64,000 nucleotides of DNA from Erpobdella octoculata (Eukaryota > Annelida > Clitellata > Hirudinida > Erpobdellidae), in the NCBI GenBank assembly GCA_963978895.1, contig OZ022242.1, positions 9,077,614-9,141,613 of the forward strand, written 5' to 3'. The position numbers and the translations under genes were made by a program. Position 1 is the stretch's first letter, and the number at the start of each line of letters is the position of its first letter. Of the stretch, positions 45,822 through 57,944 are shown one piece after another. The notes under the pieces were generated by a model. The model was not told where the DNA came from. It searched no databases and worked only from the letters and a program-made list of their open reading frames with translations.

Positions 45822-46092
45822 TGTATAGATAATAAGCAGAATGTGTGGCTGGGATTTTTCTTTTTAAACTTTGGAGTTGAGACAACAAAATAAATGAACT
45901 AATTATTTTAAATCAAAATGTTTTTGGTGAATTGTTTATGGCACAAAAATATATTGTCTTCTTCACTTGAAAAATAATAGAAGTTCTCATAACTCGTTAG
46001 TGATTGCAGTATCCTACATCAGTTTTACTGTTAGAGCTGAAATTTGATTTCAATTTATTGGCTATGATCGTGGGTTGCTAGATGTTTTAAGC
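45822..46092. other. Intergenic DNA, no gene
   Basis: No coding or repeat signal beyond AT-richness. Ends with GTTTTAAG, the target duplication of the next hAT element. Confidence 0.5.
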
Positions 46093-46104
46093 AGTGATGG
46101 GCAG

Positions 46105-46345
46105 TAGTTAACTACTTTTAACTACTTTAGTAGTTAACTACTTTTAACTACTTTAGTAGTTAACTACTTTTAACTACTTTAGTAGTTAACTACTTTTAAC
46201 TACTTTAGTAGTTAACTACTTTTAACTACTTTAGTAGTTAACTACTTTTAACTACTTCAGTAGTTAACTACTTTTAACTACTTTAGTAGTTAACTACTTT
46301 TAACTACTTTAGTAGTTAACTACTAGTTTAACTACATGGGAGTAG
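46105..46345. repeat. 26-bp subterminal tandem repeat of the hAT element
   Basis: About nine copies of AGTTAACTACTTTTAACTAC-type units, palindromic in part (TAGTTAACTA). In hAT elements subterminal repeats bind the transposase; here the number is unusually high. Confidence 0.9.
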
Positions 46346-46467
46346 TTAAGGCAAAAACATAGTTTATTACAAGGCGCAGGCAAAGCCTATATGCCCGACA
46401 AAAAAAACCATAAAAAGAATAAATTAAAGAACATAAATTAAACAAACAAACAAAAAGTACAGATAAG

Positions 46468-48560
46468 TCAAATTTCATTCCTCCAGCAAAATCGTGTAGG
46501 ATGGTCCATCCAGTGAGCATCCAGGAGACTTTTAAACTGGAAGATATCTTTTGCTTCTATGACTAAAGCAGGAAGTTTATTCCATGTATTGATTACTCTT
46601 GTGGTAAAAAAAAACTTTTTGATGTCCAGTCTAGAATATGGTTTTTTCAACTTGTGAATGTGCCCTCTTGTGTTGAGTAAATTAGATTTTATTATTAAAC
46701 TTGGAGCTGAATTGGCACAGTAAAAATAGTTTAATATTTTATAGACTTCAATCATGTCTCCTCTAGCTCTTCTAAGCCTTAGAGTAGATAGATCGAGATA
46801 CTTCAGTCTTTCTTCATATTTTAAATTTCGACATTCACGCACTAGTTTAGTTGCTCTTTTTTGTACTTTTTCAAGTTTTTCTATCATGCTTAAATTGTGA
46901 GGGGACCATACCAGAAAAGCATATTCAAGATGTGGACGCACTAAACCTTTATACAGAAGCAAAAAACAATCCTTCGATAAGATGTGGAAATTTCTTTTAA
47001 CAACTCCTAGAGTGCTATTAGCTGTTTTGACTAGTTTGCATATATGAGTATTAAATTTTAGGTTGCTGTCTATTACAACTCCTAAATCTCTGACTTCATG
47101 GACTGTTGAAATGTGGTTTTTACTAGTTTTTAGTGTCCCCTTCAGCAAAATTGTAATCAAATTTATATGTGTTATGCAATGACAAATATACACACTTGCT
47201 ATAGTTCAGTTTTAGGAGCCAATCTTTGCACCAGGTAGAGAAGAGATTTAAACAGCATTGGAGAATCTGTTGATCATCTACACTGTTGATTATCCTGAAA
47301 ATTTTTGCATCGTCAGCAAATAAAAAGATATTTAGACCTTCAACGTCACAAGCTTGAAATACGTCATTGATATAAATTACAAATAGTAAAGGACCTAGGA
47401 CACTTCCTTGTGGGACTCCGCTGAAGACTTTATGCCGAGATGATAGCTGGTCATTAACCTTGACTTGAAAGTGTCTTGTTGTCAGAAAGTTTTCAATCCA
47501 TCCTATCAGAGTATCGTGTAATCTATAGCACTTTAGTTTATAAATTAACTTTTTGTGTGGCACTTTGTCAAATGCCTTTTCAAAATCGATGTAGATTATA
47601 TCTACTTGCTTGCCTTGATCCAGAGCACTCGTCCAGAGATTCATAATTTTCAGTAATTGCAAAGAAGTAGATTAACCTTTCATGAAACCATACTGATTAC
47701 CATGGAATAAATTATTATTTAAAAAGTGTGATAGTATAGAATCGCTCAGAATAGATTCTTTTATTTTACATGGAACTGAGGTCAAGGACACCGGTCTATG
47801 GTTTAATGGATCATGCTTACTACCTTTTTTAAATAGTGGAACTATAGTACTAATTTTCCAATCCTCAGGGAGTGTTCTTTTACACAGTGAATCACTGAAA
47901 ATTTTAGCCAAACATGTATAAATTTCATGCCTACACTCAAAAAGAATTTTTGGGTAGATACCATCAGGTCCTTGAGATTTGTTAGGATTCATTTTAGACA
48001 GTTTGGCAAAAACTAATTCAGGTATTATTGATATTTCATTCATTGGAAAATCAGTTTTGAAAAGCAGCTTCTCATAATTAAAATCTGATGTATCATTTAC
48101 AAAAACCTTTTCAAAGAAAGATGCCAGACATTCCGATTTATCTTTATCTGAGGAGCAGATCACTGTTTTCCCATTGCTATCAGTATATTTTAAATCTATG
48201 GTGCTTGTTGTTTGAGTTTTAGTTTTAACATACTTCCAAAAAGCCTTAGGATTGTTTTTACATTTGCCGGCAACCGACAGTTGATAAGACTGTGCTATTT
48301 CCCTAGAAAGTCGTCTAACTTTGTTTCTGGTAATTTTGTATTCTAATAGATTGTTTAGATTTTTATTTTTCATATAACCTGACCAGAGCTTTTGCTTCAA
48401 CTTTATCAAATTTTTGAGCTCTAACGGAATGCGTTTCTTATTTCCTGGTTTAAATCCCCGAACAGAAGATAATGGAACAAATTTGGCCGTCGCTGCTGAC
48501 AACAGTACTTTAAAGTTGGTCCAATAGTCTAACATAGGATCCTTGATCAAAGACAGTCTA
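46468..48560 (-). pseudogene. Reverse transcriptase of the non-LTR element
   Basis: Three frame segments. 47672-48550 holds the linker and RT start (NPNKSQGPDGIYPKILFEC; TIVPLFKKG; NHRPVSLTSV). 47123-47662 has IDFEKAFDKVPH, FSGVPQGSVLGPLLFVIYIN and the active-site LFADDA. 46468-47160 is the C-terminal part (RDLGVVID, LVRPHLEYAFLVWSP, RGDMIEVYKIL). A stop separates the first two (after GFMKG) and a one-base shift near 47150 separates the last two. Known relatives are CR1/Jockey-group polymerases, which copy RNA at a nicked target. With two lesions it is inactive. Confidence 0.9.
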
Positions 48561-49298
48561 AATAAATCATTTTGCTAATGAGTTTTTCATGGCTATGTAA
48601 TCTGCACTGTGGAACTTGAATTTGGCCTTTGGTGACACTTTTAAACTAGACCAAATGTAGTTTACTATAAGTACTAGATGATCACTTTTCCCTAAAGGGG
48701 GTAGGTAATCTAGGTTCAGGTGGTTATCATATGTACTGAAAACTAAATCTAAGATGTTGGCATGCTGATCATTTCTAAATCTTGTAGGTTGGTGCACAAA
48801 TTGTTCTAGATAATTTTCTGCAATAATTTCAATCAGTTGGTTTTCAAAAGATTTATCGCTTCCAGGTGCATTATATAATGTCCAATCAATTCGGGGTAAA
48901 TTGAAATCTCCTAAGATAATTTTTTTCCCATTCAGTTTACAAAATGTAGATAATAAGTCCAGCAAGCCAGAATTGTTTAATACATTAGAATGTGGACTTC
49001 TATACACAACCAAAATAGATAAATCAAAGAGATGACCAAACAGCTTGAGACAATGAAATTCATCAAAATTAGGGGTGGTAACCAAGTTTTTTCTTACATA
49101 ACAGTATAATCATCTTTTTGAAGGTTTCATAAAATAAACAGTTAGTAAAAAATAATTATCAATGTTATATTCACTTTCTAGATGCTCTTCTGTAATTCTT
49201 TTTGGATTAATTTCAGTAAACACAATAATATCAATATCGTCATGAGCACATAAAAGAAACTTTAGCTCTGAAAGCTTATTAAAAAGTGAATCTACATT
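48561..49298 (-). pseudogene. APE endonuclease domain (distal part) of the non-LTR element
   Basis: Minus strand. 49298 down to about 49130 reads DSLFNKLSELKFLLC and DDIDIIVFTEINPK, the E-containing metal site of APE-type nucleases (TEIN). After a frame break near 49100, 49085-48567 reads ILVVYRSPHS, KKIILGDFNLPRIDW (GDFN motif) and the final PPLGKSDHLVLIVN (SDH motif). The domain nicks target DNA to prime reverse transcription. Its first residues lie on the far side of the LTR element at 52400-52440. Confidence 0.88.
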
Positions 49299-56639: not shown

Positions 56640-56815
56640 CAACAACAAACTCACTGCTCATGTATCCTCAGCTAACAAGAGTTTTTCTCAAGTTTAAGCA
56701 GTGCTGCTGTTGAGAGACTGTTCAGTTGTGCAGGTCAAATATTAGTGCCAATACGGTGCAAAGTGTCTGACAGTATGTTTGAAAAGCTTGTTTTCCTGCG
56801 TCATGTACTCAAACT
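56640..56815 (+). pseudogene. hAT transposase C-terminal fragment
   Basis: Within the host hAT element. A frame at about 56700-56810 reads SSAAVERLFSCAGQILVPIR, then VSDSMFEKLVFLR, the dimerisation motif of hAT transposases. The upstream coding part is lost. Confidence 0.85.
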
Positions 56816-56825
56816 ATAATCATCT

Positions 56826-57622
56826 ACAGGTAATAAAACGATGTAAACTTAATCCTGACAAGTTTGAACTAATCTATTTCAACAAGTCCTCTAAATCCCT
56901 AAATCCACTTCCTTTGGTTTTGCCACACCATCTTCTCTTTCCATTTCTCCTTCTCCCTTGATTCGTAGCTTAAGTTTTCTCTTTGACTCTAACTTGTCGC
57001 TAACCCCCCAAATTACTTCTGTTACTAAATCCTGCTACTTTCATCTTCGCCTTATTAAGCAGCTTCGTCCACTTCTGGATGATCCTTCGCTGCAACTTCT
57101 AGTCTCTTCTCTTGTCCTGTCTCGAATTGACTACTGCAATTCTCTATACTATGGTCTTCCTGACACTACCCTCTATCCTCTCTCTAAAGCCATCAACTCG
57201 GCTGCTCGCTTAGTTTCTCGCACCTCCTACTCCTCTCACATCTCTCCATCTCTTGTTCTTCTCCATTGGCTTCCTCTCAGATATAGGGTGATTTTTAAAA
57301 TCTGTTTAATAATGTACAAAATAAAAAATTGCCTTTCTCCTCTCTACTTAACTAATTTAATACATATCCCTCCTAAGTCTGGTCTTCGTTCTTCTTCTCG
57401 TAATCACTCTCGCATCTTCACTATTAAGCATTCTTTTGCTAAACGCTCTTTCTCCTACTCTGGTCCCTATCTCTGGAACTCTCTTCCTTCTTCTCTTACT
57501 AACTCTACTTCTCTCACAGTTTTCCGTCGTGGACTTAAAACATATCTGTTTAATAAGTTCACGACCGAGCGCTATTGAACACTGCGGAAATAGCGCTATA
57601 TAAATAATTGATTGATTGATTA
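56826..57622 (+). pseudogene. L2/CR1-like non-LTR reverse transcriptase C-terminal fragment
   Basis: After KRCKLNPDKFELIYF at about 56836, a frame at 56958-57578 reads SCYFHLRLIKQLRP, LVLSRIDYCNSLYYGLP, INSAARLVS, LHWLPLRYRVIFKICLIMYK and SYSGPYLWNSLPSSL. The end GCGCTATATAAATAATTGAT, then TTGATTGATT, is the short tandem 3' tail expected for L2/CR1 elements in place of poly(A). It is 5' truncated inside the hAT element, just past the transposase motif. Confidence 0.88.
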
Positions 57623-57769
57623 ATGTTTGACACCGTCTGAAGTAGATTGATTGGCTGGATATTTAACTTATAGTTTTGTGTCTTTTCATTAATAAATTAA
57701 AAAAATTTGTCATGGCTTTATTTAATAAATTAGATGGTGAACATAATTAATGTATTAGTGTACAAGTTT

Positions 57770-57936
57770 ATAGAAAAAAGTAGTTAAAAGTAGTTAACAA
57801 CTACTTTACAGTATTTAACTACTTTAGTTAAACTACCTCTGACAAAAAGTAGTTAACTACATAGTTTAACTACTAAAAAGTAAATGTAACTACAGAAAAG
57901 TTTAACTACTTGAAAGTAGTTTGTTGCCCATCACTG
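57770..57936. repeat. Right subterminal repeats of the hAT element
   Basis: AAAAGTAGTTAAAAGTAGTT, TAGTTTAACTAC and related words up to the terminus GCCCATCACTG. Confidence 0.9.
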
Positions 57937-57944
57937 GTTTTAAG

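What the first reader, a model, noticed from the sequence alone, without database searches (positions are those of the whole stretch)
46085..57944. Four-level nest of transposons with readable order of events
Seen directly: a hAT element (TSD GTTTTAAG) contains a minus-strand non-LTR element. That element is split in ORF1 by a P-type element (TSD TTTACGCC) and in its endonuclease by an LTR element (TSD ACATT), which itself holds a SINE fragment (TSD CATGGCCTGAAC). Both coding frames rejoin exactly across the two insertions. Order of insertion: hAT, then non-LTR, then P-type and LTR, then SINE. Five classes in one 11.8-kb interval give a rare relative clock.
Basis: partly seen in the sequence, partly recalled or inferred. 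Interest (0 to 1): 0.8.

Follow-up and report, generated by a model that had tools for sequence, protein, structure and literature searches.

The report
Six jumping genes nested in layers
An 11.9-kb stretch of a large eukaryotic genome holds six mobile elements, five of them lodged inside the sixth over four levels; the layering is real and recent, but it is an ordinary outcome in a genome rich in young mobile DNA.

Summary
A short non-autonomous hAT copy (46092-57936, duplication GTTTTAAG) contains a minus-strand LINE ("LINE1"). LINE1 is split by a P-type element (TTTACGCC) and an LTR element (ACATT); the LTR element holds a 68-bp retroposon piece (CATGGCCTGAAC).

Of 20 LINE1 copies fetched, 11 run uninterrupted across the LTR site and 7 across the P site. 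Of 29 hAT loci, 18 are complete 778-937-bp copies with exact 8-bp duplications.

Corrections: the hAT, P and LTR copies all look non-autonomous.

The layers that could be measured are young: hAT 2.04% from its family majority, LINE1 0.90% and P 0.23% private changes, LINE2 0.64%, LTR pair 2 of 149. These fit the nesting but do not prove it; P against LTR, and LINE2 against LINE1, stay unordered.

Nested insertions are an established relative clock (TinT), so this is a clean instance of a known kind. Side finding: two longer relatives of the small retroposon carry sub-threshold type-P1 twister ribozyme matches.

The parts
46084..46091 (.). hAT target-site duplication, left copy GTTTTAAG
46092..46355 (+). 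hAT left arm: terminal CAGTGATGGGCA and a 26-bp tandem array (8.9 copies here; the 6 other copies aligned have a much shorter stretch)
46356..49298 (-). LINE1, 3' part (RT and most of the endonuclease), up to and including the left ACATT; the exact 3' end is uncertain by a few bases because of an A run
49294..49298 (.). LTR-element duplication ACATT, left copy
49299..49588 (+). 5' LTR (TG...CA) with TA/TG microsatellite
49589..52041 (+). internal part of the LTR element: acidic-repeat ORF, integrase zinc-binding and integrase core matches; no reverse transcriptase match in the 4 ORFs scanned; split by the small retroposon piece
50864..50875 (.). duplication CATGGCCTGAAC, left copy
50876..50943 (+). 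68-bp 5'-truncated retroposon piece with a tail of 27 A
50944..50955 (.). duplication CATGGCCTGAAC, right copy
52042..52399 (+). 3' LTR; 2 differences in 149 bases from the 5' LTR outside the microsatellite
52400..52404 (.). duplication ACATT, right copy
52405..53331 (-). LINE1 middle part: most of ORF1 and the start of the endonuclease reading frame
53324..53331 (.). P-element duplication TTTACGCC, left copy
53332..56321 (+). P-type element, 2990 bp, 38-bp terminal inverted repeats at 97%, THAP domain match, no transposase core match in the ORF scanned
56322..56329 (.). duplication TTTACGCC, right copy
56330..56478 (-). LINE1 5' part (ORF1 start and one of two 5' UTR types)
56484..56844 (+). 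hAT middle, with a remnant of the transposase C-terminal dimerisation region (weak Pfam match)
56841..56844 (.). LINE2 duplication ATGT, left copy
56845..57622 (+).
57623..57936 (+). hAT right arm ending ...TGCCCATCACTG; begins with the second ATGT (57623-57626)
57937..57944 (.). hAT duplication GTTTTAAG, right copy
32284..32483 (-). outside the nest: longer relative of the small retroposon, with a twister-P1 match at 32400-32460
35341..35513 (-). outside the nest: second longer relative, with a twister-P1 match at 35446-35506

Best explanation
The interval is the product of six separate, recent insertions. A short non-autonomous hAT copy landed first. A near full-length LINE1 (minus strand) went into its left half, with no duplication and about two target bases lost, and a 5'-truncated LINE2 went into its right half. 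A non-autonomous P-type element then cut LINE1's ORF1, and an internally deleted LTR element cut LINE1's endonuclease. Last, an A-tailed, 5'-truncated retroposon went into the LTR element's integrase region. Shown: the LINE1, LINE2, P and LTR junctions, by relatives without the insert; the outer hAT and the small piece, by their duplicated flanks and by relatives with the same ends. Inferred: the mechanism of each insertion (transposase supplied in trans for hAT and P, target-primed reverse transcription for the LINEs and the small piece, integrase for the LTR element).
For: Exact duplications. Uninterrupted LINE1 copies at the LTR site (11 of 20) and the P site (7 of 20), the two halves of the window copy overlapping by 5 bases at the LTR site and, in L011, the one copy where both halves were matched, by 8 at the P site. 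hAT copies with exact duplications and no large insert (18 of 29), and an alignment of 6 of them that shows the empty LINE1 and LINE2 sites. P copies elsewhere with their own 8-bp duplications, GTTCAGAC and GTTGCGCC (2 of 2 fetched). The 3' end of the small piece recurs at 2 other window places and in 3 of 72 held loci, some of which overlap one another or the window. The hAT query matches end to end only at this locus among the 40 places scored. Divergences fit the order: hAT 10/489 from majority, LINE1 35/3877 private, LTR pair 2/149, P 7/2988 private.
Against: The divergence clocks are weak. Private changes are upper bounds on time since insertion, and families were sampled unequally (LINE1 20 copies, hAT 19, LINE2 11, P the 2 nearest full-length scorers I fetched). 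On private changes the hAT is not older than LINE1 (5/489 against 35/3877, p 0.80) and LINE1 is not older than LINE2 (p 0.39). The LTR pair interval is wide, 0.17 to 4.9% (computed with 145 columns; the count is 149). The genome searches for the LTR body and the small retroposon did not complete, so no copy of the LTR element without the small piece was seen; that innermost layer rests on its 12-bp duplication and on relatives of the piece. No reads were available.
Confidence: 0.95

Rival explanations
1. Misassembly: copies of abundant repeats were joined wrongly so that the layers only look nested.
For: The families searched have many first-look candidates and some copies are nearly identical, the situation in which assemblers err; no reads could be checked.
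Against: Five of the six elements are flanked by exact 4-12-bp duplications, and the LINE1 and hAT pieces rejoin as in uninterrupted relatives. Wrong joins would not be expected to leave these.
Confidence: 0.03
2. Some layers arrived together: a LINE1 copy already carrying the P or LTR insert was itself copied into the hAT.
For: Topology alone does not exclude it; 19 of the 39 other LINE1 places scored were not read, and more lie among the unscored candidates.
Against: None of the 20 LINE1 copies read breaks at either insertion site. P has 7 private changes in 2988 against 35 in 3877 for LINE1, p 0.00027, though sampling was unequal.
Confidence: 0.02
3. The 68-bp piece is not a SINE but the truncated 3' end of an RTE-like LINE or another transcript copied by LINE machinery.
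For: Its 3' end is shared by copies with different 5' parts (L021, L022, L054). A review passage says truncated twister ribozymes are conserved at the 5' end of RTE retrotransposons (PMC7761336, passages seen), and two longer relatives here have such a match. ARAGORN finds no tRNA in the window.
Against: The two longer window copies are short (173 and about 200 bp) and 95% alike over 177 aligned columns, as a SINE-like unit would be. A family-wide copy search did not complete.
Confidence: 0.45

Closest known systems
Nested insertions as used by TinT (Transpositions in Transpositions; PMC3014933, abstract and outline seen)
   Same: Element-in-element insertions give a relative order of activity.
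   Different: TinT uses the frequencies of many nests; this is a single locus with four levels and six elements of different classes.
hAT superfamily, short non-autonomous (MITE-like) copies
   Same: 8-bp duplications, shared terminal inverted sequences, remnant of a hAT dimerisation region, many short copies.
   Different: The copy here has an expanded 26-bp tandem array in its left arm.
P-element superfamily, THAP-bearing
   Same: 8-bp duplications, terminal inverted repeats, THAP domain.
   Different: About 3 kb with no recognisable transposase core in the ORF scanned; the two near-identical copies fetched share its 145-, 86- and 77-aa frames.
Endonuclease-bearing LINEs of the CR1/L2-like kind (resemblance recalled)
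   Same: ORF1 plus endonuclease-RT ORF2 (300- and 990-aa stop-free segments together in 5 of 20 relatives), short tandem repeats at the 3' end, 5' truncation, little or no duplication.
   Different: Clade not tested with a tree; LINE1 has two unrelated 5' UTR types.
Ty3-type LTR retrotransposons
   Same: LTRs with TG...CA ends, 5-bp duplication, integrase zinc-binding and core domains.
   Different: No reverse transcriptase match in the 4 ORFs scanned, so probably a non-autonomous derivative; LTRs contain a long TA microsatellite.

Membership tests
hAT element | 8-bp target-site duplication | tested here: met
   GTTTTAAG here; exact in 18 of 29 fetched relatives, one mismatch in 3
hAT element | terminal inverted repeats shared with relatives | tested here: met
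   CAGTGATGGGCA at 46092 and its reverse complement at 57925; same 11-base ends in relatives
hAT element | hAT transposase | tested here: inconclusive
   only a C-terminal remnant, PF05699 E 0.0097, 16.1 bits against a cut-off of 21.4
P element | 8-bp target-site duplication and terminal inverted repeats | tested here: met
   TTTACGCC; 38-bp ends 97% inverted; two relatives with their own 8-bp duplications
P element | THAP domain | tested here: met
   PF05485 E 9.5e-11 in 54261-54464
P element | transposase catalytic core | tested here: not met
   no Pfam match in the 145-aa ORF 54868-55305; so filed only as a P-like non-autonomous derivative
LINE (LINE1) | endonuclease and reverse transcriptase on one element | tested here: met
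   PF14529 E 2.7e-16 and PF00078 E 2.7e-26; continuous in relatives
CR1/L2 clade | clade placement by RT tree | not tested
   name is a recalled resemblance only
LINE (LINE2) | reverse transcriptase match | tested here: not met
   no Pfam match in 56895-57578; the fragment is a 3' end, so its LINE nature rests on copy number, truncation, tail and a recalled ORF likeness
LTR retrotransposon | two similar LTRs with flanking duplication | tested here: met
   147 of 149 bases identical outside the microsatellite, ACATT on both sides
Ty3-type | protease-RT-RNase H-integrase order | tested here: inconclusive
   integrase H2C2 E 4.3e-15 and core E 2e-8; no RT match in the 4 ORFs scanned
SINE | short A-tailed unit with flanking duplication and several copies | tested here: met
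   68-bp piece with 27 A and 12-bp duplication; relatives at 32284 and 35341 and in 3 of 72 held loci
SINE | RNA polymerase III promoter | tested here: inconclusive
   no tRNA in the window by ARAGORN; promoter boxes not searched separately

The most novel reading that the evidence does not exclude
The small-retroposon family here is a compact SINE-like element that carries its own self-cleaving type-P1 twister ribozyme near its 5' end and was recent enough to insert into a young LTR element; ribozyme-processed short retroposons would then be part of an ongoing multi-class burst in this genome.
Probability: 0.3. Interest if true: 0.5.

Novelty: new member of a known kind. Interest (0 to 1): 0.22.

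Why it matters
It is a very readable record of successive insertions: because copies of the hAT and LINE1 without the inserts exist in the same assembly, the LINE1, LINE2, P and LTR junctions can be called to the base or within a few bases. It suggests that elements of several classes (hAT, two LINEs, P, LTR) moved within about 1-2% divergence in one genome. It does not open a question that genome-wide nesting statistics could not address better.

Tried and rejected
Tried with little or no result: an Rfam scan of the whole window at gathering thresholds found nothing; ARAGORN found no tRNA. The protein search with one LINE1 piece gave 146 hits, 120 listed; the best by E-value is 41% identical over 81% of the query, higher identities being over shorter stretches; of the listed rows 7 name Hydra vulgaris and others a tubeworm, a crane and a turtle, so the host is not identified. 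The first hAT divergence run was wrong because minus-strand loci had not been turned; it was redone and only that is used. A palindromic copy of the P end inside the P element (56174-56210) was considered as a further insertion and rejected: it is in both relatives fetched, longer in L072. Rfam matches to mir-297, MIR2629 and a Wolbachia sRNA in L021, L022 and L054 score below their gathering cut-offs and were set aside; the same call found no twister match in those three loci at E up to 0.1. Genome searches for the LTR body (50974-52000), for the small retroposon (32295-32471) and for LINE1 52406-53323 did not complete.
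Full report
What is there. The outer element is a hAT copy, 46092-57936, ending in CAGTGATGGGCA and its complement and flanked by GTTTTAAG at 46084-46091 and 57937-57944. Inside it on the minus strand is a LINE ("LINE1") with ORF1, endonuclease (PF14529, E 2.7e-16) and reverse transcriptase (PF00078, E 2.7e-26). LINE1 is cut by a 2990-bp P-type element (53332-56321, TTTACGCC) and by an LTR element (49299-52399, ACATT). The LTR element holds a 68-bp A-tailed piece (50876-50943) between two copies of CATGGCCTGAAC.

Chance. At this base composition two unrelated flanks match over 8 bases with probability 3.3e-5, over 12 with 1.9e-7 and over 5 with 1.6e-3. 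The 5-base duplication alone would be weak; the genomic copies below make that site firm.

Uninterrupted relatives of LINE1. The window lies in a 386-Mb, 94-contig assembly at G000:C5:9077614-9141613. Of the 20, 11 run straight through the LTR site, the two halves of the window copy overlapping by the 5 duplicated bases, and 7 run straight through the P site with a single TTTACGCC. The matches of the rest end before those sites; none of the 20 breaks at either site. In 5 of the 20, stop-free segments of 300 and 990 aa are found together, and some copies differ by only 0.03-0.1%, so the family has moved very recently; the window copy's longest stop-free segments are 300, 245 and 206 aa.

Relatives of the hAT. 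The search had 631 first-look candidates and scored 40 places; 29 relatives were held as loci. 18 have both ends and an exact 8-bp duplication, with lengths of 778-937 bp; 3 have one mismatch; L051 has ends without a matching duplication; the left flank of L032 lies outside the locus; 6 have no pair of ends within the limits I set, 200-3500 bp, so copies with large inserts would not be seen. So the hAT here is most likely a short non-autonomous copy swollen by its inserts.

Empty sites and the sixth element. Aligning the window hAT with six insert-free copies shows LINE1 sitting between ...GGCAAAAA and TTAACTACC... with about two target bases lost, no duplication and five unassigned bases (56479-56483). 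The same alignment shows a second insertion: 56845-57622, plus strand, between two copies of ATGT. This appears to be the 3' end of another LINE ("LINE2"); the 39 other places scored match it at 98-99%, and the first look had 2456 candidates. It gave no Pfam match, so its LINE nature rests on its copy number, its truncation, its TTGA-repeat tail and a recalled likeness of its ORF to the C-terminal part of CR1/L2-type reverse transcriptases. The left hAT arm also has a 26-bp tandem array of 8.9 copies where the six relatives have a much shorter stretch.

Ages. hAT: 10 of 489 bases differ from the family majority (2.04%; the 19 relatives' median is 1.23%), 5 private. LINE1: 35 of 3877 private (0.90%, 20 relatives). 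LINE2: 5 of 777 from majority, 4 private (11 relatives). P: 7 of 2988 private (2 relatives chosen among the nearest by score). LTR pair: 2 of 149 outside the microsatellite, both transitions. Private changes are upper bounds on time since insertion and depend on sampling. LINE1 against P differ (p 0.00027); hAT majority differences against LINE1 private changes differ (p 0.029), but these are unlike measures; hAT and LINE1 do not differ on private changes (p 0.80), nor do LINE1 and LINE2 (p 0.39). So the clocks agree with the nesting and say that the measured layers are young; they do not order P against LTR or LINE2 against LINE1. The 68-bp piece was not dated.

The coding state. The LTR element has an acidic-repeat ORF followed directly by integrase zinc-binding (E 4.3e-15) and integrase core (E 2e-8) matches, with no reverse transcriptase match in the 4 plus-strand ORFs scanned. 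The P element has a THAP match (E 9.5e-11) but no transposase core match in the ORF scanned; two near-identical relatives share its 145-, 86- and 77-aa frames. P-related sequences are numerous: 958 first-look candidates, 40 scored.

The small retroposon. Its 3' part matches two other places in the window, 96% over 50 bases and 95% over 39, and occurs in 3 of 72 held loci, weakly in two of them. The two window copies are about 200 and 173 bp and match each other at 95% over 177 columns. In a scan of 3.4 kb both match Rfam type-P1 twister, E 4.3e-6 and 5.9e-7, scores 38.4 and 41.4 against a gathering score of 67.2; at gathering thresholds the window has no Rfam match. Copies in L021, L022 and L054 share the 3' part but not the 5' part and gave no twister match. 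The 68-bp piece in the nest is truncated and lacks the twister region. A review passage reports truncated twister ribozymes at the 5' end of RTE retrotransposons as work in preparation (PMC7761336, passages seen). Whether this is a SINE, an internally deleted RTE, or several forms sharing one tail is open.

Literature. The TinT paper (abstract and outline seen) states that thousands of element-in-element insertions exist and uses them as a chronology. A Hydra genome paper (passages seen) applied TinT to its putatively active families, which include hAT, CR1, L2 and Gypsy. A search for twister ribozyme with retrotransposon and SINE listed 3 papers, of which I saw passages of one; I therefore make no claim that this family is undescribed.

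Verdict. Observation confirmed, interpretation mostly right, significance modest: a clean example of nested insertion in a genome with several young families. No nest count was made for this genome, so how unusual four levels are here is not known.

Noticed in passing
32400-32460 and 35446-35506 (minus): Type-P1 twister ribozyme matches inside two longer relatives of the small retroposon, below the gathering score.
   Followed up: partly
56845-57622: Sixth insertion, a 5'-truncated plus-strand LINE-like fragment with a TTGA-repeat tail; 2456 first-look candidates in the genome.
   Followed up: yes
56330-56478; L011, L013, L016, L017, L020, L023, L026: LINE1 exists with two unrelated 5' UTRs: the window copy and L011 share one, six other copies share another.
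   Followed up: partly
11678-15999: Two long ORFs (799 and 740 aa) of a more intact Ty3-like element, about 65% identical in DNA to the nested LTR element's integrase region.
   Followed up: no
46103-46335: 26-bp tandem array expanded to 8.9 copies in this hAT copy.
   Followed up: partly
58223-58941, 59791-60737, 61725-62183: Very long microsatellites just right of the nest: GTAT about 180 copies, a TAGCAG-type array of about 930 bp, and AGT 153 copies.
   Followed up: no
22782-23553, 31340-31939, 32771-33333, 34031-34566: A tandem unit of about 149-157 bp recurring in several arrays on both strands.
   Followed up: no
L012 2671-3263: A 92% match to the nested LTR element's acidic-repeat region, close to a LINE1 copy on the same contig.
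   Followed up: no
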